Origin: Antitrichia curtipendula | Lineage: Eukaryota; Streptophyta; Bryopsida; Hypnales; Leucodontaceae | DNA: 64,000 nt | Assembly (NCBI GenBank): GCA_951230915.1 | Contig: OX579638.1 | Coordinates: 22,648,696-22,712,695, forward strand | Direction: 5' to 3' | In this document: positions 5,401-45,720 of the stretch, piece after piece | Numbering within the stretch: the stretch's first letter is position 1 | Layout: every line of letters starts with the position of its first letter | The notes under the pieces: generated by a model | What the model saw: only the letters and a program-made list of their open reading frames with translations | What the model was told of the DNA's origin: nothing | The model's database searches: none | Program-made: the position numbers and the translations under genes

Positions 5401-5510
5401 GTACCGGTGGAGTCTGGAGCGACGGAGGCTGGAGCAAGCGAGGCTGGAGTGGAGTGTACCGGTGGAGTCTGGAGCGACGGAGGCTGCAGCGAGCGAGGCT
5501 GGAGCGGAGT
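5401..5510. repeat. 55-bp tandem duplication
   Basis: The unit starting GTACCGGTGGAGTCTGGAGC at 5401 repeats at 5456 with few changes. Internally it is built from shorter GGAGCGACGGAGGCTG-type pieces. Confidence 0.75.
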
Positions 5511-5647: not shown

Positions 5648-5735
5648 AATTCCACTGGGGGAACAATGTTTCGCATCAGACCCCCCGCACACGCGGGGGG
5701 TCTGATGCGAAACACTGTTCCCCCAGGTCGTGGAA
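5648..5735. repeat. near-perfect long hairpin
   Basis: The arms 5648-5687 and 5693-5735 are reverse complements over about 40 bp, with one mismatch and a 3-nt bulge, around a loop of about five bases. The stem contains TTTCGCATCAGACCCCCCGC. It lies just outside the giant hAT element, in what would be an intron of the candidate interrupted host gene. Confidence 0.85.
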
Positions 5736-5782: not shown

Positions 5783-5790
5783 ACCTGAGC
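5783..5790. repeat. left 8-bp target-site duplication of the giant hAT element
   Basis: ACCTGAGC lies immediately before the CAGGG terminus at 5791. The identical octamer follows the other terminus at 22561-22568. An 8-bp duplication is diagnostic of hAT elements. Confidence 0.9.
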
Positions 5791-5803
5791 CAGGGTTGTC
5801 ATA
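5791..5803 (+). repeat. left terminal inverted repeat of the giant hAT
   Basis: CAGGGTTGTCATA fits the CAGGG-type start of many hAT ends. It pairs with 22548-22560 with one mismatch, at position 3. Confidence 0.85.
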
Positions 5804-5821
5804 ACGGGCGAGTTAGGGTCA

Positions 5822-5880
5822 TCGGACGTCCCGGACGGACGGGCAAACCGGACCGGACGGACGGTCCGGACCAACTGGAC
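5822..5880. repeat. left subterminal CGGAC-rich zone
   Basis: GGACGTCCCGGACGGACGGG followed by AAACCGGAC and further CGGACGGACGG copies. The first 30 bases recur in the same orientation at 22503-22540 near the other end. This is probably a transposase-binding subterminal region, by analogy with other hAT and CACTA elements. Confidence 0.55.
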
Positions 5881-5890
5881 GGCCTCAATT

Positions 5891-6090
5891 NNNNNNNNNN
5901 NNNNNNNNNNNNNNNNNNNNNNNNNNNNNNNNNNNNNNNNNNNNNNNNNNNNNNNNNNNNNNNNNNNNNNNNNNNNNNNNNNNNNNNNNNNNNNNNNNNN
6001 NNNNNNNNNNNNNNNNNNNNNNNNNNNNNNNNNNNNNNNNNNNNNNNNNNNNNNNNNNNNNNNNNNNNNNNNNNNNNNNNNNNNNNNNNN
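5891..6090. other. assembly gap (200 N)
   Basis: Exactly 200 N. A round number suggests a scaffold gap of unknown true length. It lies 100 bp inside the left end of the hAT element and hides the 3' end of the transposase gene. Frames read across it are not meaningful. Confidence 0.95.
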
Positions 6091-9000
6091 ATCTCGAACA
6101 ACAACATCATCATCCTCTGGTGCCTCGTCATTGGCATCTTCATTGCTGTCATATTCATCTTCTGCTTCACCACTGTCGGTGGTCCAATGTTCCTCAACTT
6201 CCGAGTTTTCATTTCGAAGCTCTATAGTTGTTTGGCCATGAGTACGTTTGCGCTTCAACCTCTTGTGTCGTTGTGCGTTGGGGTCTTCTGCATCAGAATT
6301 TATAGTAGGCCCACCTGTAATTGTTCGAACAACAAATGCCGGAGTTGACCGGCTAGGTCCTGGTACGTATGTACTTAGGAACGGTTCTATCACCCTATTT
6401 GGATCTCTTGCTCCAATTCCGAGGGGTGAACGATTAGCATGCCTTGGCGATGATGCTTCTCCAATATGCAGATCTTCTGTTCGTCCTCGGCTTGTACTCC
6501 CTCCACGGCCTGCAGCTCTACCATGGCCTCTCGTCCGTCCACGGGCTTGTTGATATTGACCTACTTCATGATGAACGGAGGGCCGAGGGGCCACAGGTGG
6601 TCTACCACGTGAAACTCTTTGCAGAGTCAAATCAACATTTCCCACTGAGCCTAATCCTTGTTGAGAAGGTCTTTGGATGGCATTGGAAATTGTTTCTGAA
6701 GATGGATCTAGGGAATGTGGCACTTGTGTACCATGTTCAGAAATAGCAGGATGGCCCGCAACTGGAGCCGGTACAGGGGCAATGTCTTCGGGTGGTTCTA
6801 CAAAAGCAAAAACATCATCATGGTCCACATGCTCTGGATCAAAAGGCCTTCTCATGTTACCAGCCGGTTGATTTCTTGCAAAAGGGCGTGGCACTCTTGC
6901 ATTTCTAACGTTTCTATCATGCTGTCTTTCTAGAGCTCTAATGTTACGAGTTGCTGGTTCCACTCCCGTAGGGCGTGTATTGCCATCTCGATTGTGAGAA
7001 GATCCTCCATGATTTGGATTCGCATTCCTCCCCCTGTTTCTCTCGCCATTTTCACGTCCACCACCATTTCCATTTCCACCACCATTTCCATTTCCACCAC
7101 CATTTCCATTTCCACCACCATTTCCATTTCCACCACCATTTCCATTTCCACCGCCATTTCCATTTCCACCGCCATTTCCGCCGCCATTTCCTGGAGGGAG
7201 GTTGTCATCATCGTCGTTGTTGTTGTGGGAAATACCATCATCAACGTTATCGTCATTTGGATTGTCGGTCTCCAAAGAAGACGACAAAGCTGGGACTTCT
7301 ACAACCCCTTCATTTTGAGGAAGTGGAGGTGAAAGACTACGACGAGGATTTGGTGGTGGTGGTCCCCTACGACCACGAAGGAGTTCCTCCTCTCCATCAT
7401 CAGCATCTCCATAGTAGTTCCGCGCTTCTTCGAGGTGATCGGCTCTTTGCCTCCAAAGATCTGGGTTTGCCGGATACTCTTGAGCTCCTCGGTTGGCTTC
7501 CCCATCAACCTCTTCTTCTTCCTCTAATTGCAGTGCGTCAAATTCCCGATTGCGTTCATTCACCGGGATCGGTCCAAGGGCATCTGGATCAGAATCCTTT
7601 GAGTACATATTCGCATCATACCAACGAACTGGATCGGCTCCTGGTCATTGGCGAAGTACACGGCTATTGGTATAAATATATACCAGGGACTCTGCCTTTT
7701 CAAGGGCCAATCGATTTCGGATCTTATTGTGAACAAAGGAATACATACTCCAATTCCTTTCACAGGAGCTGGCGGAACACGTGAGGGATAAAATACGCAC
7801 GGCAATTTTCGAAAGAGCCCAATCTCCAACCCTGTGCCACCATTGGTGGGGAAGCATTTGTGTCGCACGGATGTTGGGTGTCTCAGCTGGACTGTAGGGT
7901 CCAATACCCTCCTCGAATTCTGTTAATTCCGCCATCACATCATCAAAATTGACACCCAGGTTCCCCATCATGTTGCGGATGACTCTGTACAATGCACGTA
8001 GAGCAGTTCGATCTTCTCTGAGCGCCACGTTATCCAAGAGGTATGGATTCAAAAGGGCCGCTGCGTAGTGTGTATCTTCAAAAACCATGTGCCATCTTGC
8101 ACTGAAAGATTCTTCCAAAATGACTGCTATGTCATCACGTAAGCTGAAAGGTGGTTCTCTTAAAGAAAACACATGCCCTCGCAAATTGTGCATTACGAGC
8201 CACGCCCGACCCATGGCTGGTTCTCGTCCATCAAACACACGCAAAGCCTTCAATACGTCTTCAGTCATGTACACGTAATTCACACACCGTTGCCAGAAAG
8301 CCACATCTTCAATGGTTCTTTTGACATTACGTGAAGCGGTAGCTGCTTGCGGTCCATTTTGTTCATTCCTTAGGGTATCAAAGAAATTTAGAACACGTGG
8401 GTGGTTATTCAACCGCTCCAAGACTCCTCTGAATTTCACCAATCGCTGCAACATGAGGAAATTACAAGCGAAGCGGGTTTCGCTAGGCACTACGAGTTGC
8501 AGATTCGGACTCAACTCGCGGAAAACCGACATGGTCGCATGATGGTTTCGAATGTATTGGCACAATCTTTTTGCCCTGGCAATTAAATCGAAAATTCTTG
8601 GACTTTGGCCCAGTCTTCCAACATGAGATCTAGTGCATGTGCCATGCAGCCTTGCGCAAAAATATGCGGGTATGTGTTAGTGATGTCCTTCAATGCGCCA
8701 AGCATGTTTGCTGCATTATCTGTGCACACTTGTGTTACATATTTGGGACCCACCTTCTCAATGTACACGTTCATTTGGTCCGATATGTAGCGCATGGTTT
8801 TCTTTTGCGAGGTAGTATCAATTGACCCCAAAAATACATCACCTGTGGGGCATGACATCATCACATTCATGAGAGGTCTCCGATTGACATCATCCCAACC
8901 ATCGGTGTATATCGACACCCCGTAGTGCTTGACAGCAAATCCAACCTTTTCTTGAATCTGCTTCTCAATTTGCAACCTCCTCGGTTCAATCAAATTAGTC

Positions 9001-9632
9001 CTAAATTGATGGTAAGAAGGTGGACTGTATTCAAACTTCGCCACTGAGGTTGCCCTCACCGCTTCAATGAAGGCTAGATGCCTTGCCACATTAAATGGCA
9101 CATTCGCTTCATAGAAAAAGCTTGCCCACTTCTCATCCAACTCCTTCCTCTTTGCAATGTTGAATGCGTCCGCCATGCGTTGTTGACGTAATGATCCAGA
9201 TCTCGTAGAATTGGATCCAGCAAGACTATTTGACGTTTGTAGAATATCAATTCCTTCTGAAACGTTTGCCCCTTCTTCCGCTCTTCCACCATTGATCCCA
9301 CCCGTCACCTCATTTTCAGTGGCTTCACTTGAACTTGCAAGAGGAGTTGCTCTAGATGGCGCACTTTGAATTGGTTCTCCTTCATACATGTCCCCGACAT
9401 CGATTCGTAGCGGGACAAATCCTGCACAATTGGCAAATCTATGTCGCACTGGACGAGGCATACTTCGACAAATTGACTTCTCCGATTTGGAGCCATATCC
9501 AAAGTGTGCAAAAGCTCGCTCACGTTTGTAACTGAAGGTCCCAGCACAGAAAACACAAGTCACTTTAACCCCATTCTCCGTAAACTGAAGCCACGGCTCC
9601 CATTCCTTGGTCTGCTTCCTTTGACTTGCCAT
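6091..9632 (-). pseudogene. hAT transposase, broken by a frameshift and a nonsense codon
   Basis: ATG at 9632 starts MASQRKQTKEW. Residues about 20-45 form a BED-like zinc finger (CVFC and a downstream His). A DUF659/RNase H-like core follows, with Asp in YTDGWDD (about 244) and in CTDNAANM (about 305). Near 8584-8592 the frame shifts by one base, which looks like a one-base deletion after the VQEF codons. The next frame continues with LCQYIRN and ends with a clear hAT dimerisation domain (SASSCERNWSMYSFVHNKIR). A TGA at 7645-7647 then interrupts, and the same frame stays open for about 500 more codons into the gap. That tail is acidic and low in complexity, with GGGNGN repeats. The TGA is most simply a decayed CGA. 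Function when intact: cut-and-paste transposition of the 16.8-kb element. The long C-terminal tail is unusual for the family. Confidence 0.88.
7060..7195 (-). repeat. 18-bp coding minisatellite (GGGNGN repeats)
   Basis: About seven copies of an 18-bp unit, read on the minus strand as Gly-Gly-Gly-Asn-Gly-Asn. It sits in the C-terminal tail of the transposase frame, and its length is probably variable between copies. Confidence 0.85.
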
Positions 9633-9891
9633 TGCGTTCAACGATCCAAGGATATTTTCTTCCGTCTTCCTCCTCCTTTATATTGAAGTTAAAAGGATCC
9701 AAGATATACCAAACACAGTATCAGTAACAGCAGTTAGCGCTACTCCACTGCTTGAACTGATTTTGACATCACCTCAGCAGCAAACTAGGGCCATCTGCCA
9801 CCCAAGTAGACTCACAAGGAGCTCAAAATGAATTGAAGTCCAAGAAATAGAGGCCAGGTGACAAATGTGGGGAATGCTGGGTCTTCCTTTC

Positions 9892-9901
9892 CTTTATATA
9901 C
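9892..9901 (-). promoter_or_regulatory. TATA box of the transposase gene
   Basis: GTATATAAAG on the minus strand, about 260 bp upstream of the ATG at 9632. It lies immediately downstream of the GC-rich array starting at 9944. The same arrangement precedes the other two genes of the element. Confidence 0.6.
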
Positions 9902-9943
9902 TTAGCGGTTTAGGGGGCACGGACGTCTTCGTCACCAAAGTAT

Positions 9944-10115
9944 AGGGCGCGGACTTGAAGTCAGGGCGGGGACTCGAAGGCAGGGCGGGGACTTGAAGGC
10001 AGGGCGCGGACTCCAGGGCGGGGACTCGAAGACAGGGCGGGGACTCCAGGGCAGGGACTCGAAGACAGGGCGGGGACTCCAGGGCGGGGACTCGAATGCG
10101 CGGACTCCAGGGCGC
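9944..10115. repeat. GC-rich minisatellite, array 1 (upstream of transposase)
   Basis: Alternating 19-bp (GGGCGGGGACTCGAAGGCA type) and 14-bp (GGGCGGGGACTCCA) units on the plus strand, about ten in all. The GGGCGGGGACTC core is kept while the spacer varies. The open frames seen across the array (Pro/Arg/Ser repeats) are artefacts of the repeat. Confidence 0.85.
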
Positions 10116-10315
10116 GACTCCAGTACAAAAATGCAGGTGTGCTCACGGGGATGCATCGAAAAGTACGTTGACCTTCGCCATCCTTAATGGTCTGGGAAGA
10201 TTGTGTCCCTCCTTTTCATGGAAAAAGGGGAACATTAAATGTCGTTACGCCCCCAAATTTGTGGGCAAAGAAAATGGCTTTCACTCCCCAATGTTTTTGC
10301 TCAATGGATTGTGCT

Positions 10316-10500
10316 AGGGCGCGGACACAGGGCGCGGACTCCGGGGCGGACAATTCACACAAATGGAGGAACTTGAGAGAGCGCAGCTCAATCTCAGACT
10401 CCATGGAATGGACTCAAAGTCAGGGCGCGGACTTGAAGGCAGGGCGCGAACCCCAGGGCGGGGACTCGAAGGCAGGGCGGAGACTCCAGGGCGGGGACGT
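10316..10500. repeat. GC-rich minisatellite, array 2
   Basis: Further 14- and 19-bp units of the same family, more degenerate (GGGCGCGGAC, GGGCGGAGACTCCA). The array abuts the conserved block at 10501. Confidence 0.8.
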
Positions 10501-10705
10501 ACTCGTCCAGCCCAGGAAGCATGACTTTGAAATGCGCTTGTGCTTGACATCCTTCAACCGCCTTTTCCTTAGAGCGGGGGAAGCATTAATTTTAGCCTCA
10601 ACAAATTCTGACAAGACAATGAAAGCAAGATGCCGAATAAAGAGCTCCACGGCCTAAGATTTGGAAGAAACTCCATGGAAGAGCATGTCCCCTTCGTTGT
10701 GATGA
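10501..10705. repeat. conserved intergenic block, copy 1
   Basis: About 205 bp starting ACTCGTCCAG is closely matched by 13281-13485. Both directly follow a GC-rich array and precede an AT-rich repeat array, so they belong to a duplicated module. Confidence 0.8.
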
Positions 10706-10744
10706 AAGGTATTAGGAAAACTCTCCTATCCCAAGTTTGTGCCA

Positions 10745-11700
10745 TTCATTCGAGGTCGGATCTTTCTCTCTCCTTTTTTTTGGGCTTCATTCCTAGAACT
10801 CTCCCATTCCAACTTATTCTAATTTTTTTTCTTTTGGTTGAATCATTCTTTTTTCTATTTTGTTCCTAAAACTCTTCCATCTCAAATCAAAGCCAAATGT
10901 TCATTTTTGGTTCCATCATTCCTTTCCCTATTTATTTGGATCATTCCTAAAACTCTCCCATCCCAATTCATATTTTTTGGGTTGTTTTGTTGAATGATCT
11001 CCTTTTCTAATTTGTTTTGCTTCAAAACTTAGCAAGTCTCTTTTGTAGTATTCTTCCAACACCATGCCGATCTTTGTTTGTTGAATCATGCCCTTTCCTA
11101 CTTCATTTTTGCTTATTTCTTGAAGTTCTACCACCTCAATTCAAAGCCATAATTTATTTGTTCCATCATTCTCTTTTTTTTCGTTTTTGTTTCTGCTTCA
11201 TTTCTAAAATTCTTCCATTCCACCTCAATGCCCCTTAGTTTTTTTGGCTACATGAACTCCTTAAGCACTTTGTTTTCAACTCAATGCCATTTTATTTTTG
11301 TTCCACCATTCCCTTTCCTATTTTGTTTGGCTTCATTAATTCCTAAAACTCTTTAATTCCAATTGCATGCCAATAGTTATATGTAGAATCATTCGATTCT
11401 TTATTTTTATATACGTTCCTATTTTTTTCCTTCTTTAATTCCTAAACTCTTTTATTCCAAGTCTATGCCAATCTTTTTTTATTTAGTCATTCCCTTTCCT
11501 ATATTTGTTCTTTGCTTCGTTCCAAAAACTCTTCCATCCTAAATCATTGCCATTCTTGATTTGTTGAATCATTCCCTTTCTTATCACTTTTGCTTCATCC
11601 ATAAACAAATTCTTCCATCCGAAGTTCCAAACTCAATGCCATTTGTTTTTTAATCCATTATTCATATTCCTATTGATTTTTTATTTCATTCTTGTCTTAG
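10745..11700. repeat. degenerate AT-rich tandem array 1
   Basis: Loosely repeated units of about 60-80 bp share phrases such as CATTCCCTTTCCTATTTTG, CTTCATTCCTAAAACTCT and CCATCCCAACTCAATGCCAT. The same family occurs at 13735-15300 and 18850-20060. No coding potential. Confidence 0.75.
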
Positions 11701-11796
11701 AACAATGAGAAGTTACAAGTTATAGTTTGTTCTTCATGTAAAGGGATTCATTTTTTGGAATACTTGGCACAAGGGACTCTTTTTTAATTGAATGTA

Positions 11797-13030
11797 CAGT
11801 ACCCTCCAAGAACTCTTGCAACCCCATGTCTAGTTCTCATCCGAGTAGTTTGATTACAAATCAAACTCATGGTAGGTAAATTTAGATATTTGATTGAGAT
11901 TTTTTGCCCCAAACTAGGTGAGTCATGCACCTTGTTGTAACTCATTCCACTTCTTAGAAAAATCTTTCTTTGTGAAAGGTGGTTGATTTTGAAAACACTA
12001 AGCTAAATTTAAAGGGACAATGCTAATTTGAAAATTTCATTGTAGAAGATCATAGGTAGTGGATTTCAACCGGTTTTGCGGTTGAGAGGATCAACATTAG
12101 TGCATGCATGCTTCTAGTGATTGTTGCTTGTAGACATAGCCTAGAAGTTTTGTGAGAAAAAATTAATGTTTGTCTAAAATATTGTATATATGATGTTGCT
12201 AGAAGTTCTATAAGCAAACTTGTGAAGTTCTAAGCAATGTTGGTCAACTTTGCACCATGACATAATGTAAAATTCATTGAGTGGCCACCAAATTCTTTTG
12301 ACCTTAATCCTATAGAGAATTTATAGAAGCAAGTCAAAAATCGAGTACAAAAAAGATGTAGATCCTACAACAATGACTAAATGTGGACATTAGTGAATAT
12401 GGCATGCAAGGATATACCTCAAGAAAGTATTCAAAAGTCAATTTCTACGATGCCAAACCAAATCAAAGCTAAGATAGCAGCTCAAGGTGGTAGTACTTGA
12501 TGGTAGTAGGTGTAACACTTTGTTGCAAAGTCGTTGCTAGTCAGCGAGACATACTGTAAAATTCATGATATAGTAGGCTTTACAATACCATAGCTTCCTA
12601 ATGATATCCTATTTGACAATATTTATTCAAATGTTTTTGAATACATGACCTTTGCCTTGAACATGTATGAAAGGAAATTGCAAAATACATTAAAGCCAAA
12701 TAGACAAAAAATTTACCTACATAGTGTGCATCTTTGTAATATGAAAGATGTGAACAATGATGTTTCCTAAATATATACGCAATCAGATCTTAAAAAATCA
12801 TCATACACATTTTCTAATTAATTATTATGTAATATCATGAAAAATAAATAAAATAATTCACCAAAAATGGAGTTTCTATTTTTAGACATTGAAATTTCAT
12901 ATGTTGGTGAAGGTTCCATAAAGCAATAGATTTAATAGGATACTTTACATAGTATGTTCTTAAGATGGAGTTAAAAAGAAAAATTTGAAGGACTTCATAA
13001 TGGGGTTGCAAGACTTTTTGGAGGGTACTG
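11797..13030 (+). mobile_element. Tc1/mariner element nested in the giant hAT
   Basis: A 1234-bp segment is flanked by TA on both sides (11795-11796 and 13031-13032). It has 31-bp terminal inverted repeats starting CAGTACCCTCC that differ at two positions. Its interior carries a decayed Tc1/mariner transposase. It sits at the join between the AT-rich array and GC-rich array 3, so it landed after the giant element had formed. Confidence 0.88.
12279..12500 (+). pseudogene. Tc1/mariner transposase C-terminal remnant
   Basis: From 12279 the frame reads EWPPNSFDLNPIENL, stop, KQVK, matching the family signature WPPxSPDLNPIEN(L/V)W that carries the last catalytic residue. Further on, IPQESIQKSISTMPNQI and KIAAQGGST match the usual C-terminus. 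Stops and frame changes make it non-functional. Confidence 0.85.
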
Positions 13031-13033
13031 TAC

Positions 13034-13280
13034 AATACGGCGGGGACTCCATGGTGGGGACTTCAAATAAGGGTGGGGACTCGAAGTCAGGGCGGGGACT
13101 CTAGGGCGGGGACTCGAAGGCAGGGCGGGGACTCGAAGGCAGGGCGGGGACTCCAGGGCGGGGACTCGAAGGCAGGGCGGGGACTCCAGGGCGGGGACTC
13201 GAAGGCAGGGCGGGGACTCCAGGGCGGAGACTCCAGGGCGGGGACTCGAAGGCAGGGCGGGGACTCCAAGGCGGGGACTA
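13034..13280. repeat. GC-rich minisatellite, array 3
   Basis: The most regular array: about 15 alternating 14- and 19-bp units with core GGGCGGGGACTC on the plus strand. Unlike arrays 1, 4 and 5 it has no gene directly on its left, only the mariner insertion and the older AT-rich array. It is therefore a duplicated intergenic module or the promoter of a lost gene. Confidence 0.88.
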
Positions 13281-13485
13281 ACTCGTCCAGCACAGGAAGC
13301 AAGACTTTGAAATGCGACATCCTTGAACCGCCCTTTTCCTTGGAGAGTGGGAAGCATTAATTTAGCCTCAACAACTTATTTTGGATTCTGACAAGACAAT
13401 GAAAGCAAGATGCCGAATAAAGAGGTCCATGGCCTAAGATTTGGAAGAAAATCCATGGAAGAGGATGTCTCCTTTGTTGTGGTGA
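13281..13485. repeat. conserved intergenic block, copy 2
   Basis: Direct repeat of 10501-10705, including the phrases GAAGCATTAATTTAGCCTCA and AGATGCCGAATAAAGAG. It differs by scattered substitutions and short indels. Confidence 0.8.
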
Positions 13486-13734
13486 GAAATGTTTTTCCTT
13501 ACTTCTTCTAACACTTCAAACTACTTTGAACAAACATATCATTTAGGTTGTAAAAAACAATGTAAATTCTTTGATTTAGGAAATGTTTAGGACACTTTGA
13601 GGAAATATTTAGTAAATGTTTAATCAATATTTTTGAAATGTAGTGTACTAGATAAAAGGATAAAATTGCATTGTATTTGAAATGAAAGAAATAGTAGGGG
13701 AGTTATTTAAAATTCTAGGCCTTCAATGTGCAAC

Positions 13735-15300
13735 TGCAATTTTTAATTCCATCATTTCCTTTCCTAATTTTTCGGGCTTCATTCCTAAAAGTCTTCCATT
13801 CTAAGTCACTGTCCTTTTTTGGGGGGCATCATTCCCTTTCCTATTTTTTTCCAGGAATTAGCACAGGTCTCCCATCCCAACTTGTCAATTGTATGGCATT
13901 CTTTTTGGGTTGGATCATTTTGTCTTCTTTTTCTGTAGATGCTTCATTCGTAAGACTCTCCCATCCCAAATTATATTTAATTTTTTTGGTTTAGTTGATT
14001 CATTCCTTTTTCTATTTTGTTCCTAACAATCTTCCATCCCAATTTTCAATTCATCTTTTTTTGTTGAATCATTTCCATCTCTATTTTGTTTTCGCTTATT
14101 TCCTGAAGTTCTCCCACCCCAAGTCCCCAACTCAAAGACACCATTTTTTTCTTCATTAATTCATAGAACTCTTTTATATGAACTCCATGCCAATATTTAT
14201 TCATCCAACTCACTTCCTTTCCTATTTTTTTTCTTCATTAATTCCTAAAATTGTTTAATCCAACAGTAAGCATTTTTTTTTTGCTTATTTCCTTTCCTAT
14301 TTGTTTTATTTATTAGCACAATTATTCCATCTTAAGGGATTCCCTAAATTTTTTTCTTTATGGTACGAAATTGAAGTCTATCCATTCACTTCCCATTTTT
14401 CATATGACATAAGAGGTAATGTGAAACAATATTTGTTTCATATTTCTTTCACATTTGTTTGTTTTTATTAGCAACATTTAAAATGCACTTACATTTCTTT
14501 CCCTTCCTAATCTTTGTAAAATTCATTAGCAAAATGCCAAAATGGCTCCATTCCATCATGAGCCCGAAGGCCATTTAAATAATTTAATTTTTGTATTACC
14601 TAAGCCCTTCTTATTTTTTGTTAGTGATTTGCAAGATTATTGTATTCCAAATAGATGCCTTTTTTTTGGGTATATCATTTACTTCCTAATTTTATTTGAA
14701 CTTCATTTGCAACATTATCCCATGCCATCCCAATGGCCAATGTCCTTTATTTTTTGTATATCATTCCCTTTCCTATTTCTTTGGGATTCATTTCCTTATC
14801 AAATGTTTCTTGGGATTCATTCCCTTTCCTTTTGGGGGGGGATTCTTTCCCTTTCCTAATTTTTTGGATTCATTTCTTTTCCAATTTTTTTTAGATTGAT
14901 TAGCAAAATTGTTACATCCCAAGTTATATAAAAACTAAATGGCATTATTATTCTCTTCCTAATTTTTCTCCAACTCAATGCCAATTTTTGGCATTCAGTT
15001 TACCTTCCTATTTTTTTTGTGCTTCATTAGCAAAATTGCTCCATCTAAAATTCTCAATCAAAGGCCATTTAAATTTTGTATTCTCTAAACCCATTCTAAT
15101 TTTTTTGGGCTTCATTTGTCACGTTATTCTATCCCAACTAAATGCCATTCATTTTTAAGTAGGTAATTACTTCCCTATTTTTTGCTTTTCTCTATCATTC
15201 CTTTGCCTATTTTGCAAGTGAATTTTTACCTATTTCAATCCCTTTTGGGGGGGAGTTCCATCATTCCTTTGCATATATATATATTTCCATCAAGGCATTA
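13735..15300. repeat. degenerate AT-rich tandem array 2
   Basis: The longest block of the 60-80-bp repeat family, just downstream of the 3' end of the RING gene. Units vary strongly and poly-T runs are frequent. Confidence 0.75.
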
Positions 15301-15684
15301 ATGACATTTGAAAAGCGTTTTTTCCCCTAATTTCAAGTTCGGGCCACTTCGTGCCTTCGTGGTCCGTCCAACCTTCCCTACTTCTATTCATTGAGTGGAA
15401 ATTGGGAATGAATTGTACTCCAATTCAATGACATTTCATTTCATGGTATAAATAATTTTAATATGTATGAAGTCCACAAGTCCATTCAAATTTCAAATGA
15501 GTACGTGCAAAAAATAAATGAAGTCACTTTGGGCAAAATCATTCAAAACAAAATCAAATATATTTCATATGCATAGTGTAATACAAAGTAGGAAAGTATA
15601 TAAGCCTATATAATATTATAGTGCTAGGAAAATAAGTCTTCTAAGAAAACCTAAACTCACTAGCTAAAACACTCAAAACTATAC

Positions 15685-17982
15685 TTAGTCCATGTTCATT
15701 GGACTACTTGCACTGCCACTTGGTCCAACCTCATTGTCATGTGTCCCGGCGCGAATTGGAAGGTCTTCATCTGTTCCCAAACGAAGTCTACGAACTGCGG
15801 ATCGAGTTCTCCTCGCTGGTCCGTCTTCCTCTAAAAGAGCCTTCAATATTTGTGATTGCTTGAGGCTTTGAAGACATTGGAGAGTTCCCGGACTATGTTG
15901 TTCCAACAAGAAGTCCATCCCATCATTTCGAAAGGTTTCTCGCCACTCTGACTCCGATAGTTGTGCAAGTTCAGCAGGGTCTGGCATGTCAATGTCTTCC
16001 CCTCTCCGCATCCTCTGGTCGTCAGTAATGCGAACTCCTTCAACGCCCCACAACCATCCAAGAGGATGAGGTCCAAATTGGAAGTATTCTTGTGCCTCAT
16101 TCCAATGCCCATTGAAGCATTGGAAGAAGAAATTCCGTCGTCCTTGGCTAAAGTTGTCCTTCAATGGAACCAAGTGGTGGCACACCTCCACAATTTGAGC
16201 CGGATCTTTTTCCCAACCCCATTCGGTACAAAGTTGTTGTTTGCCCAACGAATGGATGTTCAATTTCCAACTCCACACCAAGTCTGTTCCCCACTTCTGA
16301 GAATGATCAGGGGCATTTTCAGCATTGAATTCCCAATGCGGTGGTATGTAGGGAACTAATCCAAACAACTCATACAAGTGCTTATGGAAAGAAGCCTTGC
16401 ATAGTGAACAACGTCGGCGGACAATCATCAAGCTAATTAGGCAGAATGGGTGGTACAAATGTTCACACGTGCCTAAATGCATTCCACCTTCCGGGCCAAA
16501 TGGATTAAGGCAAATGAGACATGTAGTTCCATCGTGTACGAAGGTTGAAGGGTTTGGCCACAGTAGTAATGGATTGCCTTCATGGTCCACGGCAGAGTCA
16601 ACTTCATTCTTGAAATCCCAATCATGTTTGGACCAGTGGATGGTTGTTTGTCCACCAGCAATGTCAATGGTTGCCATTTCATCCATGTTGAAATGATCAT
16701 CCACCAGGGCCCACGATGTCAAACCAAAAACCCTCTCTTGATTGTGTGCGCCGTAATTGTGGTCAATTTTTTTGAATTCCTCCACCATTTGCCTAGTCCT
16801 GTCAACACTGAAGACACATGCCAGCTTCCATTGGTAATACTGCTCCATCAATGCATGCAATTGATTTTTCAATGTCAAATTCATTGCAAGCGCGTCCGTC
16901 AGTTGGATGCTTTGGTCCACTGGCCCTGCTGCACCTACATTTGCGGGTAATTCTCCAAAGGACAAAGAATCATCCTGAGTATCCATTGTTGCACCAACTT
17001 CTGTAGGTTCCAATGGAATTTGAGAATTATTTGAAGGCCCTTGCGCTTCCCCTCGTGGATCTTGACCACGATTGGCCAGTGTTGCTGCCTCAAGAGCGTG
17101 CCGAAGTACCTCCATCTCACGTTGTTGTTGATTGATAATGTTGTCCTTCTCTTGCATGTCTTCTCTCATTTTGTTAACATCATTATACAAAGAATGCAAT
17201 TCCTCATTCTTCTCATTCACTTCAATCAACAAACCCTGGATTCGGTTTGTAGCAGCTGTAACATCCACAATTCCGACCACTGGTTCGTCAATAGGTGGCA
17301 CCTGTTCCTCCACAACATTTTCGTGTAAAACCTCAGTAGTTTGACGCGAAGCCCTCCTCTTTTTAGCTCGTAGTAGTTGAGTTCTATGGCTGACTACAAC
17401 TGGTACACGAGATCCATCTGAGTCGTCGTCCGTAGATGAGTCTTCAGTGTCATATCTTCGTGGTGCTTGAACCTGCGTATTTGTTTTCCCTAGACCACCT
17501 TCCGGGTATCTTTTTACCCCCCTTGGAATGAATCCATTTGCTGGAGTAGGAATATTGACATTTTCTCCCATTTGCTTCAAAGTTGACCAATCCACTCTCT
17601 TGTTCAACTTCAGCTCCGCATAGACCCCTCGTGCAAGGAAAAGTTGCACTTCATTGCATATGACGTTTGAGAGAGCATACAACACTTGGTACACCTCAAT
17701 GCATCGGTTTGTAAACTCTTCGTCCAAGCAGTATTTTAAATTTGCCTTGTGGAAGCGTCTGTGACAGTTGTCTCGCTCTTCCGAGAACAACTTGTCTATG
17801 TGGCACCACTCAATGTAATTGGCGCAGTCATCATATGTCCATGGTTCAAGCACGCCCTCCCACCCCCTGAATGCAAGCTTGTCAGGGTTTCGTAGAACAT
17901 GTAGTCACTTGCGATGTTTGTTTTCGGCTCGTGGTCGGGTCCTATCTCGTTCTTCCTTGGTCATTCTTGGTGGTGTATCCAT
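15685..17982 (-). pseudogene. RING-finger protein with coiled coil, cargo of the hAT element
   Basis: ATG at 17982 starts MDTPPRMTKEERDRTRPRAE. A single TGA at 17905-17907 (codon 26) interrupts, and the same frame then stays open for more than 730 codons to a stop at 15685. That gives about 765 codons in all, without introns. Seen in the protein: a Lys/Arg-rich, acidic middle region, a coiled coil (about residues 250-300, EVNEKNEELHSLYNDVNKMR), and a C3H2C3 RING-type zinc finger (about 488-530: CLIC, TCEHLYHPFC, CSLC). RING-H2 domains usually give E3 ubiquitin-ligase activity, so the protein may act on host or transposase protein turnover; that is inference. The TGA is most simply a CGA that lost a methylated C. 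A start after the TGA would give a 5'-truncated but still RING-bearing protein. I do not recognise the full-length family. Confidence 0.75.
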
Positions 17983-18078
17983 TTTTGTAGAAAAAAGCGA
18001 AATCCTCCACGTGGCAATCAAGTAGACCCTGCACAACGCTCACAACCAGCTCAATGAAGAGATGGAAGGCTAAGAGTA

Positions 18079-18340
18079 TTCAGGGCGGGGACAAATGAGG
18101 CGGGGACGGCCTTATATAGTTGCAGCTGGGGGACGCTAGGGCGGGGACTCCATCGAGTTGGGGCGGGGACTCCTCCGCGTGGAGGCGGGGACTCCTCCGA
18201 GTGGGGGCAGGGACTCCAGATAGTGGGGCGGGGACTCCAGACAATGGAGCGGGGACTCCAGACAATGGGGCGGGGACTCCAGACAATGGGGCGGGGACTC
18301 CAGAGAGTGGGACTGGGACTCCAGAGAGTGGGCGCGGACA
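18079..18340. repeat. GC-rich minisatellite, array 4 (upstream of RING gene)
   Basis: About ten units of 21 bp, typically GGCGGGGACTCCAGACAATGG. The core GGCGGGGACTCC is shared with arrays 1-3 and 5, but the spacer is different (CAGACAATG or CTCCGAGTG). Two cores lie between the TATA box and the gene. Confidence 0.85.
18110..18120 (-). promoter_or_regulatory. TATA box of the RING gene
   Basis: ACTATATAAGG on the minus strand, about 130 bp upstream of the ATG at 17982 and directly next to array 4. It closely matches the kinase gene's CTATATAAAG. Confidence 0.65.
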
Positions 18341-18849
18341 TGATTTAAATATACGAAGTTAATGTGCTTAGACATATTTCCATTTCCTAAGGTAGAAGGC
18401 TCGAAAAGAGTTTTGGCATTAAGAACTGCCCCTATAAGTGGTTGTAGAATGGACATGATGCAGTTTTCAAATTGACCTCAAAAGACAAAAAGGAAGGAAA
18501 GAAAAAAACATTCTTTATCACAAGAGCCAATCATTGTCTTTGCTATCCCCATTTTTCTTTAGAATTGCAATATGAAGGACGTAAGAATATAAATAGGGAC
18601 CTAGGACACATCTCCTTTGAAAATTTATAGTTAATTCAATAATGTTTAAAAAAATATGAAACCGATTGGGCTACATTCCTCATCAATTTTTCTTGGTTTC
18701 AAGGATGAGCTTAAAAATATTCCCATGTAAAGAAATACTGTAGAAATGCGAACCAGCCCTTAGATGAGTGATTTCTGAGCCTTCTACATTACTCCATGTT
18801 CTAAGTGACTCTAGCAGTCCATATTGAGATTTAATGTTAGATCATATCA

Positions 18850-20060
18850 CTCTAACACCCCAATAATTTCCATATCCTAATCAATCCACCATTCCATATT
18901 TTTTTTGGGTGTTAAATTGCTTCATTATAAGTTTGTAACCCCCAAACCACTTCCATGTCCAAATCACTCCACTATTCCATAGATTTTTTGGATGTTACAT
19001 TATTTTATAGTGACACCCAAATCATTTCCATATAAGAAAGCACTCCACCATTCATATTTCTTTTAATGTTAGATTATTTAAGTCCGTAAAAATAATTCCC
19101 CCCGCTAAAAATCCTAAAATAAATTGGTATGCTTTTCTAAAGCTTTGGTCACTCCATCTCCCCTTTTAGACATTGATTTTTAAAGCACACTTCCATTTCA
19201 AGTGATTGCCATAATTTTTCTGGTGTTTTCATTCTCTTCCCTATTTTGTGGGCATCATTACCAAAAAAAATTATTTGAATTCAATGCCACTTGTGTAAGG
19301 TGGAATGATTTTTTTTTCCCGCTATTAGCAAAATTGTTCCATCCCAACTCGAGGCCATTTATTTTTGAATGATCATTCCTATTAATTTCATTTTTTGCTT
19401 TTATTAGCCAAGCTCTTTCATCTAAAGGAAATTCCATTTACTTTTTGTGGTAACGCAAATCTATCCGAACTAAATGGTAAATTTTTTGGGGTGTTAGTTG
19501 AAATCACTTTGACACACTATTTTTTGTGGGTCTATGTCTCTCACAAAATTATTCCATACCAACCCCAAGCCATTTCGGATTTGTTCCATGATTTCCTTTC
19601 CTATTTTTTTTTTCATTAATGAACAAAGGAGTTCCCATGCCAACTCTATGCCATTCCTTTTGGCTTGGATGATTATCTTTTTTTGTTCGCTTCATTCCTA
19701 AAACTCTCCCATCCCAACTCATAGTTATTTTTTTTTTTTTTGTTCAAACATTCCATTTTCTATTTTGTTTTCGTTCATTAAGTGAGAAGACTATTTTATT
19801 CGAATTCATAGTTTAGCTTTATTCGTTCAATCTTTCCTTTCCCTACTTTATTTTTTTCTAATTTACTAAAGTTCTTCCACCTCAACTCAAAGCCATTAAT
19901 CTTATTGGGTTCCATCATTCCCTTTCCTTTTCTTTTTTTCGTTTTATAATTTTTAATTTTTTTGAACCTTTTTTTGTGTTCATGATTAAAATTATCCCAA
20001 TGTACTTCAATGTTATTCTTTTTTTTGTTGGATCATTTATTTTATTTTGGGGGGGCTTCA
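18850..20060. repeat. degenerate AT-rich tandem array 3
   Basis: Same 60-80-bp family as arrays 1 and 2 (for example CATTCCTAAAACTCTCCCAT near 19692). It lies between the kinase gene's 3' end and the RING gene's promoter. Confidence 0.7.
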
Positions 20061-20309
20061 TTAACTTCTAAAACTGTAAAACATAGACATAGTGAAAAAA
20101 TAAAGTGTATGTATTTTTATACCAAACTATTGCATTCACTATTTTTATAAAAGTTTTATCATCAATTCATAGAACTCATAAACATGCAATGAGAAAGAAC
20201 AATGACATAGCAGGTTAATATATTCACATGAGATTTTGAATGTACAATGCATCCGACTTCATATATATTTGAGGTGTTCGGCAATTGCGAAGTACATACA
20301 CATGGTCCT

Positions 20310-21959
20310 CTATGAGGATGATTTACCTTCTATGCCTGAACTATATGCTAAGCTACAAAAAGTAAAAAAACTAAATACTATATACGATAACAACATTCTG
20401 GCATAGTCCAACAGTGGGGGGGCCTTCTTCAATGCGTCGAGAACATCTGGCACTGACGCCCTTTCACTCACATCCTCTTTTACGAGGCTTTCCAATTTGA
20501 TCCTGAGGTTCTGATACTGCTCTGGATTCTTCGTTGTAAAGTATTTGGAGTCCCACTCTTCCTTCCAAATTTGTGCTGCTATCCATCCGGCCGCATATGC
20601 ATCAGCTGCCATGGAATACAAATGCATTTTTTGCATGGCCTCAATTGAATTTGCCGAACCTTGCTCTCCGTATATATAAAACAATTCAGGGGCTGCAAAC
20701 CTTCGCATTCTCTTCTCCTTCACTAGGATGTCCTTGTTGGGAAAGCCATACCTTGACGGCTCCTTCTCTACAGCTCGGCTAGAAAGTCCCCAATCACATA
20801 TCCCTATATACACCGTGTGCTCTTTATAATCATCAAAATGGAGCAAAATATTGGATGGAGTGATGTCGTTGTGCATGTATTGCGCATCGTGACATTTCTC
20901 CACATTGACAAGCAAAGAGAGTGCCAAGTTCACTCGGTTCCGTCGGTAAGTTGCAACCCATATAAGCTCCTCTTTTGTCAACCATGTACCTTGTTCATGC
21001 TTAATCTCATCGACATCCAATGTTTCGCTTACTTTCGAATTGTATTTGGATAAGAAAGAAATTAGAGAGCCTCCATTCCACCATAACGTGTAGCCTTCCA
21101 TCGTTTTAGGGTGGAGGTACGCAATTCGAATGATGCCAGGATGTCTCACTGGACACCCGCCCGCCTCATTGATGATTCTTTGGCGCTTCTCCTTTTCATT
21201 CGTGGTTTTCAAGCTCTTCCCAGCAAAAAATATCCAACTAGGAATGCTCTGAAGTTTTGTAAGCATCACCTTCCTCACGGTCCCATATGAACCAACGGCA
21301 CTCTGTTCCGGCATGGGGATGACTTTTACTGAACTTTCAAGCCACTTGAATGTTCCACTAACACAATGAGCTGTTATGGTGTCTTCAATTGTCGCTTTTC
21401 AAGGTGCTTGCTTTTTCTTACGTGATGAAGAAAATTGTTGAGCAAAGTTTTGAATGATTTTCAACTTTGCAACCACCTCTTTATTTTGTGTATCCCAATC
21501 GCTACCATCTTCTTTCTTCCCCATGTGGTAACACTAATTTGACACTATATTGGTTGTGAAGGCAACCACCTGTTTATCCAGCCAGTCTTGGTGCAACCAA
21601 TAATCGGAGAAATTGTTGAATTTCTCAGATGCTTCAAACTTTGACTCCAGCTCCGTTCGCAGGTCCCTCGTGAGTTTGTGGTACCCTTCTTCATTGAGCG
21701 CCACATACTCCCTGGTCAACATAGTCGTACTGCGACGAGTGTAGAACACCACAACTATTGCTCTCCCTTCAACTATGAATTCATGTGGAGGCATATGGGG
21801 ATTGAGTGCTTTCTTGCGTTTCTTTTGGCTTGATGAAGAAGGGTTCGATGAACCTGAGGCCATCAAGTTGTCCGTGGATGGAATTACCATCTCACCAACA
21901 TCATCTAAATCTACAAACATAGGACGTTTCTCCGCCGATGCACTCCCTTCCCCCGCCAT
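20310..21959 (-). pseudogene. protein kinase, cargo of the hAT element, two nonsense codons
   Basis: ATG at 21959 starts MAGEGSASAEKRPMFVDLDD. One frame of 550 codons runs to a stop at 20310, broken only by a TAG at 21534-21536 and a TGA at 21399-21401. The 3' part is a protein-kinase domain: Gly loop GSYGTVRKV, a Lys in FFAGKSL, catalytic loop MHNDITPSNILL, metal-binding GICDWGLS and APELF. The catalytic Asp and Asn are kept. The usual HRD is HND and DFG is DWG, so it is divergent but could have been active. The N-terminal part holds a Ser-rich, basic stretch of no known family. The C-terminus ends with a hydrophobic stretch (SYIVFSFFTFCSLAYSS) that could be a membrane anchor. The stops fit C-to-T decay of CAG and CGA. 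The second ATG (21314) would leave a kinase domain alone. Confidence 0.8.
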
Positions 21960-22141
21960 AACGAAAAGAAATTGTTCAATGGGCCTCTGCAAGCACAAAA
22001 GCCCCGAAAATTTGAAAAAAACCGGGTCACATATGAGGGCCAAGCCCACCACCTTCCAAACTCACTCACATAGGCCGTGGAGACGAACTAGTGTGTGAGA
22101 CGTAGGGCGCGGACTTGGCAAAGAAATGAGGGCGGGGACTC

Positions 22142-22151
22142 GCTTTATATA
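22142..22151 (-). promoter_or_regulatory. TATA box of the kinase gene
   Basis: CTATATAAAG on the minus strand, about 185 bp upstream of the ATG at 21959. Two GGGC(G)GGGAC-type cores lie between it and the gene, and array 5 lies just upstream. Confidence 0.65.
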
Positions 22152-22196
22152 GTTCCTCCGCTCCTCAAGTACCCGCCCCGACACGTGCCGTCCACG

Positions 22197-22400
22197 CCCC
22201 GTCCTCCTCACGTTCCCGCCCCAGTCGCTGGAGTCCCCGCCCCACTCTTTGGAGTCCCCGCCCTCCACTCACTGGAGTCCCCGCCCCCACTCACTGGAGT
22301 CCCCGCCCCCACTGTCTGGAGTCCCCGCCCCTACTGGATGGAGTCCCTGCCTCCACTCAATGGAGTCCCCGCCCTGACTCTGGAGTCCCCGCCCTGCATG
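22197..22400. repeat. GC-rich minisatellite, array 5 (upstream of kinase gene)
   Basis: About nine units reading (T)GGAGTCCCCGCCC on the plus strand, the reverse complement of the cores in arrays 1-4. The spacers are CACTCAC-like, giving a period near 21-25 bp. It is therefore inverted relative to array 4 although both precede minus-strand genes. Confidence 0.85.
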
Positions 22401-22502
22401 TTCCTAAATCCACGTGGCGTCCCCGTGGCGTTCCCGTGGCCTACTTTTTTGGTTTCATAAAGTCAACTTTGTGTTGACTGTATCGGGCGGGTGAGACCTC
22501 TA

Positions 22503-22540
22503 ACGGACGTCCCGGACGGACGGACGGGCGAACCGGACTA
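22503..22540. repeat. right subterminal CGGAC-rich zone
   Basis: GGACGTCCCGGACGGACGGA followed by CGGGCGAACCGGAC. It repeats the left subterminal motif in the same orientation, within 60 bp of the terminus. Confidence 0.6.
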
Positions 22541-22547
22541 CGTACAG

Positions 22548-22560
22548 TATGACAACCATG
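22548..22560 (-). repeat. right terminal inverted repeat of the giant hAT
   Basis: TATGACAACCATG is the reverse complement of the left terminus, with one mismatch. Confidence 0.85.
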
Positions 22561-22568
22561 ACCTGAGC
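22561..22568. repeat. right 8-bp target-site duplication
   Basis: ACCTGAGC, identical to 5783-5790. Confidence 0.9.
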
Positions 22569-23200: not shown

Positions 23201-23202
23201 TA

Positions 23203-23612
23203 AGGTAGTATGCTCTTAAAGCGAATATTTAAGGGCTGGTCCGCCTTTTTAACAGGCTTTCGTAGACGAAAATATTTTTAGATCATTTTTCAGAGAAAGA
23301 AAAATAGATGTGGAACCTAACACAAGTGGTTTTGTATTTTTCCAAGCATTTCTGAATTACTTATGAATTTTCAAAGATTCAGGGCGTAGGCACCTATTTG
23401 TGATCATAGGTCTTCCAAAATCTGTCCACTTGCAACTTGTAAAGAGATGTGTGGAAATCAAAGACAATGATTGGCTCTTGCAATAGAAAAACAATTTTTC
23501 CTTGATACATTCAATTGCTAAACTGGTCCATTTAAGGATCACCCCATCTCCATTTTCCACCTAAAAATAGGGGTGGTTTGAAGAAGATGGGCGCTTTTAG
23601 AGCACACTACCT
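23203..23612 (-). mobile_element. TA-flanked MITE, copy 1
   Basis: 410 bp flanked by TA (23201-23202 and 23613-23614), with terminal inverted repeats AGGTAGTATGCTCTTAAAGC and its counterpart GCTTTTAGAGCACACTACCT. It is highly similar, in opposite orientation, to 44875-45283. The TA duplication points to a Tc1/mariner (Stowaway-like) origin. The open frame of about 67 codons inside is a by-product and is not evidence of a gene. Confidence 0.85.
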
Positions 23613-24220
23613 TACAGTAGGGTCCAGCAATAATTCGAACTTCTCCTTGATTTATTTCTAGAATATTGTATAAATTAAAATGAATTAGTCATTTAATATC
23701 TCACATAATTAACATTCAATTGTAAGGCAATCCTAATGAAGTATACATAATTTCTATTTTGAAATTTAAAGTTTCTATTTTTCATGAATTTCTAAAGTCA
23801 ATTCTCATGGATTACGTAATAATGTCATTGAAAAAATTGGTGATTAATTTATTTAATTTGATTGCAAAAATATGTAGGAGACATCCGTAAACACATCTTT
23901 CATGTCCAAAAGTACCCTATGAAGTAACAAAGATATGATCTATGAAGTGTTCAGTATGAACCAAATTAGTGAATTGAGTATTTTACTATTTTAAGCAAAT
24001 TTTGGCAAAAAAATTATACCATCGTGTTCAAAGGTACGAAATTAGAGAGGGTGCAAGGTTCAAATACCAAAATATAATTAAAATCTATTTTCTTAGCAAC
24101 CATATTGCTCAAAGACAAATTTGAATTATTTTTGTACCCCACTGTACATTGATTGTCTTTCCGGAGGCAACAAAACAGGGGGTTTTGATATGGCCATTAT
24201 AGGTTTCGCAATTCAACAGC

Positions 24221-27400: not shown

Positions 27401-28152
27401 GTCAATAGCGTTTCTTTAAATTATGTGTACAGTCCACTGATTACTATGAGAGTCATATGACATATATAAATGAGGAACGTAGATATGTCGGCTCTGGGGT
27501 TTGAACTTTCACAAGAGAATCTTCAAAAAGAAAGAGAGCATGATGAATGTTAGCAATGTTAGGAATGTGATCACGCATGTATCACAAGTTGTAATGGGAT
27601 GCTGTTGTTTGCATGTTTACAATGAAGTGTTCAGTGTACACGGATTTGAACAAAATTTTATGATAATTAGAGTTAAAAATACAAATATATTAGTATAGAA
27701 AGTGTTCACTTCTAAAACATCATTAATAATTGAAATAGTAAAAAAATAATGTAGTCCTCTATATGTACAATGTTTGTGTTATGCAAATGAACAAAATGGA
27801 CATTTACAATAGTTAGTTTGAGAAGAATTGATTATGTGGAAGTTGTATAAAGAGCATGCACCGGTTGCTTCAATATGATGGACAAGTGTATCTTCAGAAC
27901 TTTGCTGAAGCAAATGAAGGGAAAAAAGAAACAAAAATATAGGATTTGTTTTTGTATTACTCTGTATTAGGGCTTGAAAATAACTCATGATTGGGGGGTG
28001 TTCATTGTTGTTTTAAAACTATGTAGAACCACTTTTTTTTTGTGTACTGTGTGAATGAAAATATAGAGAGGATATTTGTTTGCAAAGATATTGAATTACA
28101 AAAGCTCTTCACCAAATGCATGACTATTACGTATGAAGTGTGAAGCAGGCAA
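24430..28152. other. AT-rich DNA upstream of the DUF7869-type gene
   Basis: No supported gene. A TATA-like ATATATAAATG near 27464 is the only promoter-like feature noticed. If the downstream gene is a transposase, one end of its element probably lies here, but I could not identify a terminal repeat. Confidence 0.4.
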
Positions 28153-45296: not shown

Positions 45297-45720
45297 TCCG
45301 GTCTTCAAAGAAGGCCAGCCTGAATAAAGTGTTTGTTCGTAATGACAATGAATCAGTGTCCCGGCAAAATCTACAAGGCAAGCTCTTGTCATATCAATTC
45401 TCCACCAATTGACTAGTTTCCTCCAAACTCAAATTGACACAAGCCAAAAAGTCCATTTCAAACTTAAAGTACTAATGAATATTGGATCTTCGGATTAGGT
45501 GTACAGTCCTTCCCGCATTGGCTGAGATTTCAAAAAGTAATCACTCATGGTGGGGATTTACATTTAATTTGGCCAATGCATGTCAAGGATTCTGCCTATT
45601 GAAGTTCCATTGTCTCCTCTTTGCTCTTTACAGTTTTTGGTTGGACAAATTTTACATCTTTTTTTGGAAATTTTTATTTCCACACTCAACTTAGTTAATC
45701 AATTTCTTAATGTTTTGCTC

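What the first reader, a model, noticed from the sequence alone, without database searches (positions are those of the whole stretch)
5783..22568. A 16.8-kb multigene hAT transposon with exact ends
The ends CAGGGTTGTCATA (5791) and TATGACAACCATG (22560) are inverted repeats (12 of 13). They are flanked by the identical octamer ACCTGAGC at 5783-5790 and 22561-22568. Within lie a hAT transposase plus two other long genes on the same strand, each with its own promoter. Known hAT elements usually carry only a transposase in 2.5-5 kb, so a cargo-bearing giant hAT would be a new element class, comparable in concept to Starships or Mavericks but with a different enzyme.
Basis: partly seen in the sequence, partly recalled or inferred. 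Interest (0 to 1): 0.92.

Follow-up and report, generated by a model that had tools for sequence, protein, structure and literature searches.

The report
Three-gene giant hAT transposon family
This plant genome carries a large family of 15-21 kb jumping genes that move as one unit with a transposase plus two extra conserved genes, a protein kinase and a RING-finger protein, whereas the usual members of this transposon superfamily are only a few kilobases long and carry just the transposase.

Summary
At 5791-22560 lies a hAT element with 12/13 terminal repeats and an identical 8-bp duplication. In the window's own 400-Mb genome the terminus CAGGGTTGTCATA occurs 329 times, against 4 for the reversed control. 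The seven + to - pairs 17.9-20.9 kb apart among the 100 places listed were fetched by spacing alone. All seven carry transposase, RING and kinase sequence, with different 8-bp duplications (6 exact, 1 with one mismatch). Ten more copies of the window's subfamily carry all three genes and the same two ends; 7 of 10 duplications are exact. Five copies are 96-97% identical end to end at unrelated sites. A Tc1-like passenger sits at the same internal place in 3 of 3 copies probed. dN/dS between subfamilies is 0.11-0.25 for all three genes. Kinase and RING genes thus look like conserved core genes of a multi-gene hAT, not chance cargo. The window's copy is decayed, and its N gap probably hides about 1.4 kb. 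Transposition itself, an empty site and the function of the two extra genes were not shown.

The parts
5783..5790 (.). 8-bp target-site duplication, left copy (ACCTGAGC)
   Evidence: identical to 22561-22568
5791..5803 (+). left terminal inverted repeat CAGGGTTGTCATA
   Evidence: 329 exact copies in the own genome against 4 for the reversed control
5824..5842 (+). subterminal motif GGACGTCCCGGACGGACGG, left
   Evidence: 2 in window, 0 expected by shuffles; its core GGACGTCCCGG also 33 bp from the left end of K1
5891..6090 (.). 200-N assembly gap; K1 has about 1.4 kb here with a GC-rich subterminal array
6091..9632 (-). hAT transposase gene, broken (one frameshift near 8.6 kb, one premature stop near 7.65 kb); 3' end runs into the gap about 20-25 codons before the stop of close relatives
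   Evidence: DUF659 1.9e-35, Dimer_Tnp_hAT 3.6e-7; frames; C-terminus against relatives
9892..9900 (-). TATATAARG box of the transposase promoter
9944..10498 (-). GAGTCCCCGCCC promoter arrays of the transposase gene
10700..11700 (+). AT-rich degenerate spacer repeats, block 1
11793..13034 (+). nested decayed Tc1/mariner-like insert, 35-bp inverted repeats; also inside copies K4, K7, K8 at the same place
   Evidence: the Tc1/mariner name rests on a recalled motif
13039..13279 (-). second GAGTCCCCGCCC array; with its flank a diverged duplicate of the transposase promoter region
13700..15300 (+). AT-rich degenerate spacer repeats, block 2
15685..17982 (-). RING-finger gene, single exon, one premature stop near 17.9 kb
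   Evidence: weak RING matches; 29 homologues; 765-aa open frame in K1
18110..18337 (-). RING promoter: TATATAARG box at 18118 and GAGTCCCCGCCC array
19200..20020 (+). AT-rich degenerate spacer repeats, block 3
20380..21959 (-). protein kinase gene, single exon, two premature stops and a frameshift near the C-terminus
   Evidence: Pkinase 2e-11; frames; 79 homologues; 526-aa open frame in K1
22130..22394 (.). kinase promoter (TATA box at 22151) and array close to the right end
22505..22523 (+). subterminal motif GGACGTCCCGGACGGACGG, right
22548..22560 (-). right terminal inverted repeat (CATGGTTGTCATA on the minus strand)
   Evidence: exact in 10 of 10 K copies
22561..22568 (.). 8-bp target-site duplication, right copy

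Best explanation
5791-22560 is a decayed copy of a giant autonomous-type hAT DNA transposon. The family encodes three proteins: a long hAT transposase (about 1,100-1,200 aa), a RING-finger protein (765 aa in K1) and a divergent protein kinase (about 525 aa). It moved by hAT cut-and-paste. The transposase is inferred to bind the 13-bp ends and the GC-rich subterminal arrays and to insert the whole 15-21 kb unit with an 8-bp target duplication. Movement as one unit is shown by many copies with the same ends, the same gene set and different duplications. That the kinase and RING proteins act for the element is inferred from their constant presence, shared promoter type, co-divergence and purifying selection. 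My most likely specific role is modification of the transposase or of host silencing, repair or cell-cycle factors by phosphorylation and ubiquitin-type ligation; this role is not shown.
For: Ends and duplication. 329 termini against 4 control. 7 of 7 TIR pairs 17.9-20.9 kb apart carry all three genes, duplications exact in 6 of 7 and one mismatch in 1. Five of those copies are 96-97% identical over about 17-18 kb while the 300-bp flanks of all eight copies compared share nothing. K1-K10: right end exact in 10 of 10; duplication exact in 7, one mismatch in 2, four mismatches in 1; all three genes in 10 of 10 (for kinase, 103 for K1, 121 for RING and transposase probes in 9 of 9). K1 has all three frames open. 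Same-place Tc1-like passenger in 3 of 3. dN/dS between subfamilies: transposase 0.22, kinase 0.12 and 0.11, RING 0.13 and 0.25. All three genes show the same order of divergence among subfamilies, C and F closer to each other than to K1. The 40 GAGTCCCCGCCC matches in the 64-kb window all lie inside the element. Self-similar pairs: 79 inside-inside, 3 inside-outside, 32 outside-outside. 23 of 30 kinase genes on C1 and C2 have a correctly oriented exact terminus within 25 kb; one of the 23, at 24.8 kb, is the terminus of a short element and probably not its own.
Against: No empty site and no direct excision or insertion was seen; the joined flanks were printed but not searched. K1, the one copy found with all three frames open, has a duplication that does not match (4 of 8 differ). 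The window's copy is dead in all three genes. Of the four A-G copies whose frames were listed (B, C, F, G), none has all three genes open: C has an open transposase and kinase but a RING gene in two pieces; the RING probe of K10 also falls into two frames. 43 of 84 listed kinases contain stops. The kinase lies on the opposite strand to the RING gene in A-G, so gene order is not fixed across subfamilies. dS of 0.9-1.6 is near saturation, so the dN/dS values are rough, and one recent pair (kinase C against G) gave 0.46. Genome-wide RING and transposase searches did not complete. 7 of 30 kinases on C1 and C2 had no listed exact terminus within reach.
Confidence: 0.94

Rival explanations
1. An ordinary short hAT captured two host genes (Pack-hAT or transduplication), and the copies merely amplify useless passengers.
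For: Gene capture by hAT elements is documented: a fungal hAT amplified a histone H3 gene (PMC6710886, abstract seen), and Pack-hATs exist in plants (PMC8903248, passages). The window's copies of both genes are broken, as are about half of the listed kinases (43 of 84); the recent kinase pair C/G gives dN/dS 0.46.
Against: dN/dS 0.11-0.25 in kinase and RING between subfamilies, like the transposase; all three genes diverge together; complete single-exon genes, open in K1; both genes present in 18 of 18 copies; promoters of one type inside the element only. Only weak similarity to solved kinases (best E 1e-4), not what a recently captured ordinary plant kinase would be expected to give.
Confidence: 0.05
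2. The two ends belong to different insertions, or the unit is a chance or assembly product that joins unrelated sequence (macrotransposon or scaffold join at the 200-N gap).
For: A gap lies 100 bp inside the left end; 58 of 1000 simulated windows contain some 12/13 pair with an identical 8-mer.
Against: K1 reads through the gap place without N and is 96-97% identical to the rest; 17 other copies have the same ends; C, E, F and G have no N at all.
Confidence: 0.01
3. Two or more separate transposons are nested: a short hAT, and another element carrying RING and kinase that travels by itself.
For: The kinase is inverted relative to the RING gene in A-G, as if modules can move or flip; a Tc1-like element is indeed nested; the promoter region is duplicated inside.
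Against: No second set of ends was noticed in the window element; kinase genes have the hAT terminus within 25 kb in 23 of 30; 7 of 7 TIR pairs picked by spacing alone held all three genes; gene divergences are congruent.
Confidence: 0.03

Closest known systems
hAT superfamily autonomous elements (Tol1, Tol2, Ac)
   Same: transposase domains, 8-bp duplications and short TIRs starting with CA (8 bp and CA recalled); Ac/Ds share 11-bp TIRs and some subterminal repeats (PMC3260210, abstract start in the listing)
   Different: Tol1 and Tol2 are 4.4 and 4.7 kb in the conventional transposase-plus-TIR form (PMC10175614 passage) and Ac is 4.6 kb (PMC3260210 listing); here 15-21 kb with three conserved genes
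Fungal hAT that amplified histone H3
   Same: a hAT that carries a non-transposase gene in many copies (PMC6710886, abstract)
   Different: there a captured housekeeping gene whose copies were inactivated; here two divergent genes kept under purifying selection across subfamilies
Pack-TYPE / Pack-hAT elements of plants
   Same: hAT ends enclosing coding sequence (PMC8903248, passages)
   Different: Pack-TYPE are non-autonomous and carry gene fragments; here the transposase and complete genes
Enlarged En/Spm (CACTA) families of Chondrus crispus
   Same: 16-20 kb elements with 4-5 ORFs (PMC6431247 passage citing Kojima et al. 2013)
   Different: another superfamily (CACTA) and host; the extra ORFs were not compared here
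Starships, Mavericks/Polintons, Teratorn
   Same: giant eukaryotic elements with genes besides the integrase or transposase (passages)
   Different: different enzymes and life cycles; Starships carry variable accessory genes, here the gene set was constant in the 18 copies examined

Membership tests
hAT superfamily | 8-bp target-site duplication | tested here: met
   window exact; A-G exact in 6 of 7, one mismatch in 1; K1-K10 exact in 7 of 10, one mismatch in 2, four mismatches in 1
hAT superfamily | transposase with hAT dimerisation domain and catalytic signature | tested here: met
   Dimer_Tnp_hAT and DUF659; motifs TDGWD, CTDNA and SSCERNW present in K1; their role as catalytic triad is recalled
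hAT superfamily | short terminal inverted repeats | tested here: met
   13 bp: 12/13 in the window and in K1-K10; 13/13 in A-G, which were chosen by exact ends
hAT superfamily | demonstrated transposition by this transposase | not testable with these tools
   no assay; inferred from copies with different duplications
Pack-hAT (Pack-TYPE) | non-autonomous, gene fragments instead of a transposase | tested here: not met
   transposase sequence in 18 of 18 copies (probes in nine); full-length extra genes
Starship | tyrosine recombinase captain gene | tested here: not met
   no such domain in the six ORFs scanned inside the window element at E up to 0.1; the mobility enzyme is hAT
Maverick/Polinton | protein-primed DNA polymerase and integrase, 6-bp duplications (recalled) | tested here: not met
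   8-bp duplications; neither domain in the six ORFs scanned

The most novel reading that the evidence does not exclude
A new class of giant, three-gene hAT element. Its kinase and RING-type ligase form an element-encoded helper module that modifies host or transposase proteins to license transposition of an oversized hAT. At least three subfamilies, present by the tens to hundreds of copies in one plant genome, have kept the module for a long time, and relatives of all three genes in unnamed metagenome and transcript data suggest that the class is spread over many species.
Probability: 0.5. Interest if true: 0.9.

Novelty: new variant of a known kind. Interest (0 to 1): 0.82.

Why it matters
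hAT transposons are thought of as compact single-gene elements, and the efficacy of DNA transposition is said to drop above about 6 kb of cargo (review PMC6431247, passage). A family of 15-21 kb hATs in many copies, with 41 of 84 listed kinase genes free of stops, challenges that size limit. It offers a natural system to ask why a transposon would encode its own kinase and RING protein. Such genes could easily be annotated as host kinases and RING proteins, and one relative already sits in a database as a bacterial kinase (P0031).

Tried and rejected
Scans of viral contigs with the kinase, RING and transposase alignments and with the subterminal motif gave no relatives. A scan of prokaryote genomes with the kinase gave three weak matches of 29-37% over 60-150 residues, treated as unrelated kinases without further test. 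A possible fourth gene (167-aa frame in copy C) was rejected: it overlaps GC-rich repeat arrays and recurs as repeat in short elements. The RING structure model was poor (mean pLDDT 59.8); its fold search had no match at E 0.001 and its best rows were mostly RING domains. The kinase model (mean pLDDT 84.2) is a kinase fold with an extra N-terminal helical part. Host species: not identified; class III peroxidase and plant receptor-kinase matches say land plant or close relative only. Not fetched: two wider + to - TIR spans in the list (C3 2.13-2.17 Mb, 30.9 kb; C1 21.56-21.61 Mb, 53 kb). K1-K10 are a choice: eight of the 23 kinase-terminus pairs on C1 and C2, and two on C3. Not done: genome-wide RING and transposase counts and a search for empty sites.

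Paper searches for a giant or gene-carrying hAT; none of the listings shown described a multi-gene hAT with kinase and RING genes, but only open-licence papers are held and I saw only the listed rows. Papers: PMC10175614, PMC11623301, PMC6431247 and PMC8903248 by passages; PMC6710886 by abstract and outline; PMC3260210 by search listing only.
Full report
Observation. The two 13-bp ends and the identical ACCTGAGC octamers are at the stated coordinates. Only these two places in 64 kb match the end motif exactly; two others with two mismatches are at chance level. A second motif, GGACGTCCCGGACGGACGG, occurs only twice in the window, 33 bp inside the left end and 37 bp inside the right end, with none expected. 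The terminal pattern alone is not overwhelming: 16 of 200 and 58 of 1000 simulated windows hold a pair of at least 12/13 with an identical 8-mer, and 2 of 1000 one with CA ends.

Genes. On the minus strand lie a hAT transposase (DUF659 1.9e-35, Dimer_Tnp_hAT 3.6e-7), a RING-finger gene (RING matches below the Pfam cut-off) and a kinase (Pkinase 2e-11). All three are broken here: transposase one frameshift and one premature stop, RING one premature stop, kinase two premature stops and a frameshift near its end. Homologues number 41 for the transposase, 29 for RING and 79 for the kinase, with generic names or none and no organism beyond one bacterial bin. The transposase tail stops at the 200-N gap at a point about 20-25 residues before the end of its closest relatives, so the left terminus is where the end of that gene should be.

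Coherence of the interior. All 40 matches of GAGTCCCCGCCC (at most one mismatch) in the window lie between 9964 and 22394. Of six TATATAARG boxes in the window, three lie at 9900, 18118 and 22151, upstream of the three genes and next to the arrays. AT-rich spacer repeats between the genes are all in one orientation, 18 of 19 motif hits inside the element. Self-similar pairs are 79 inside-inside, 32 outside-outside and 3 across.

Other copies. The genome holding the window has 400 Mb in 303 contigs and contains the exact left terminus 329 times, against 4 for the reversed control. Only the first 100 places were listed. The seven + to - pairs of 17.9-20.9 kb among them (A-G) were fetched, chosen by spacing alone. 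All seven hold transposase, RING and kinase sequence (in A and D the metagenome transposase matched only in part, the transposase of copy C along its whole length). Their 8-bp duplications all differ, six exact and one with a mismatch. A, B, C, D and G are 96-97% identical over 17.4-18.4 kb; E and F form a second subfamily (89% to each other, 83-84% to the first, over 12-13 kb); the window is a third (72-74% over 7-8 kb). The 300-bp flanks of the eight copies share nothing. Eight short TIR pairs (2.4-6.5 kb) were also fetched; five were tested and none matched the three proteins. Their duplications are exact in 4 of 8: probably non-autonomous relatives.

The window's own subfamily. A kinase search scored 84 genes of 1436 first-look candidates, all 87-89% identical to P0030; 41 of the 84 rows show no stop (counted by eye). 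On contigs C1 and C2, 23 of 30 such kinases have an exact, correctly oriented terminus within 25 kb; the one at 24.8 kb is the end of a short element and probably not its own. Ten kinase-terminus pairs (K1-K10, eight from C1 and C2, two from C3) were examined. The right end TATGACAACCATG is exact in 10 of 10 (best of one or two candidates); the duplication is exact in 7, one mismatch in 2, four mismatches in 1 (K1); lengths are 14.9-18.9 kb. K1, read in full, has all three genes as open frames (1184, 765 and 526 aa) and is 96-97% identical to the window; across the window's gap it has 1398 bp where the window shows 236. In K2-K10, 600-bp probes at the RING and transposase positions matched in 9 of 9 at 97.8-99.3% nucleotide identity to K1; the RING probe of K10 falls into two frames. 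Of A-G, frames were listed for B, C, F and G; none has all three open.

Movement as one unit. The Tc1-like insert at 11793-13034 is best read as an accident of one ancestor. It sits at the same internal place in K4, K7 and K8 (3 of 3 probed, 98.8-99.2%), copies with different target duplications, and is absent from K1 and A-G. Together with whole-length identity and unrelated flanks this shows that the entire unit, passenger included, was copied to new sites. That the hAT transposase did this is inferred from the ends, the duplications and the encoded enzyme.

Are RING and kinase genes part of the element? Between K1 and copy C, dN/dS is 0.22 (transposase), 0.12 (kinase), 0.13 and 0.25 (RING, two parts); kinase against copy G 0.11; the recent pair C/G gives 0.46. 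dS is 0.9-1.6 between subfamilies, so these are rough, but all are well below 1. For each gene C and F are closer to each other than either is to K1, as expected if the three were inherited together. In A-G the kinase is on the opposite strand to the RING gene, so arrangement changes while content stays. Conserved kinase motifs (lysine, HN with near-invariant D, CDWG, APE) across the 24 relatives aligned suggest an active kinase; the model is a kinase fold with an added N-terminal helical part.

How it most likely works. Shown: TIR-bounded multi-gene units with target duplications, repeated in one genome, with conserved genes. Inferred: transposase binding to ends and arrays, cut-and-paste movement, increase by transposition during replication or by repair as in other hATs (recalled). 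Inferred with less certainty: kinase and RING proteins modify the transposase or host factors to permit movement of so long an element or to avoid silencing. They could equally be needed for regulation only.

Novelty. By transposase, ends and duplications this is a hAT. Known hATs quoted here are 4.4-4.7 kb; hATs with captured genes and Pack-hATs differ in carrying captured genes that were inactivated or are fragments; enlarged CACTA elements with 4-5 ORFs are known in a red alga. I found no description of a multi-gene hAT with kinase and RING genes in the listings of ten paper searches of an open-licence library (named in Tried and rejected). I rate it a new variant of a known kind.

Noticed in passing
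window 5655-5726: A 34-bp near-perfect hairpin (97%, 4-nt loop) just 64 bp left of the element, with a 55-bp tandem repeat at 5401-5510 further out; possibly another small repeat family.
   Followed up: no
window 28144-31356: Open frame of 1070 aa with a DUF7869 domain (8e-51), probably another transposon protein.
   Followed up: no
window 42994-47145: Diverged direct repeats (86%, pieces of about 0.7 kb) with a 409-bp, 98% identical tandem duplication (45719-46541); the nearby stretch 44873-45285 is 93% identical to 23201-23614 just right of the element.
   Followed up: no
window 60987-62537: A plastocyanin-like domain fused to a receptor-like kinase in one open frame.
   Followed up: no
own genome, e.g. 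L027-L031, L046-L048: Short (2.4-6.5 kb) elements with the same ends, spacer sequence and GC-rich arrays; five of eight were tested and matched none of the three proteins: likely non-autonomous derivatives moved in trans.
   Followed up: partly
P0031: A close relative of the element's kinase (76%) is filed as a protein of a Bacilli bacterium metagenome bin; by its relatives it looks like eukaryotic contamination.
   Followed up: no
copies A-G against K1 and the window: The GC-rich arrays differ by subfamily (GAGTCCCCGCCC in the window type; CGTCCGCGCCC-like units in several of A-G), which may be co-evolving binding sites of the element's own proteins.
   Followed up: partly
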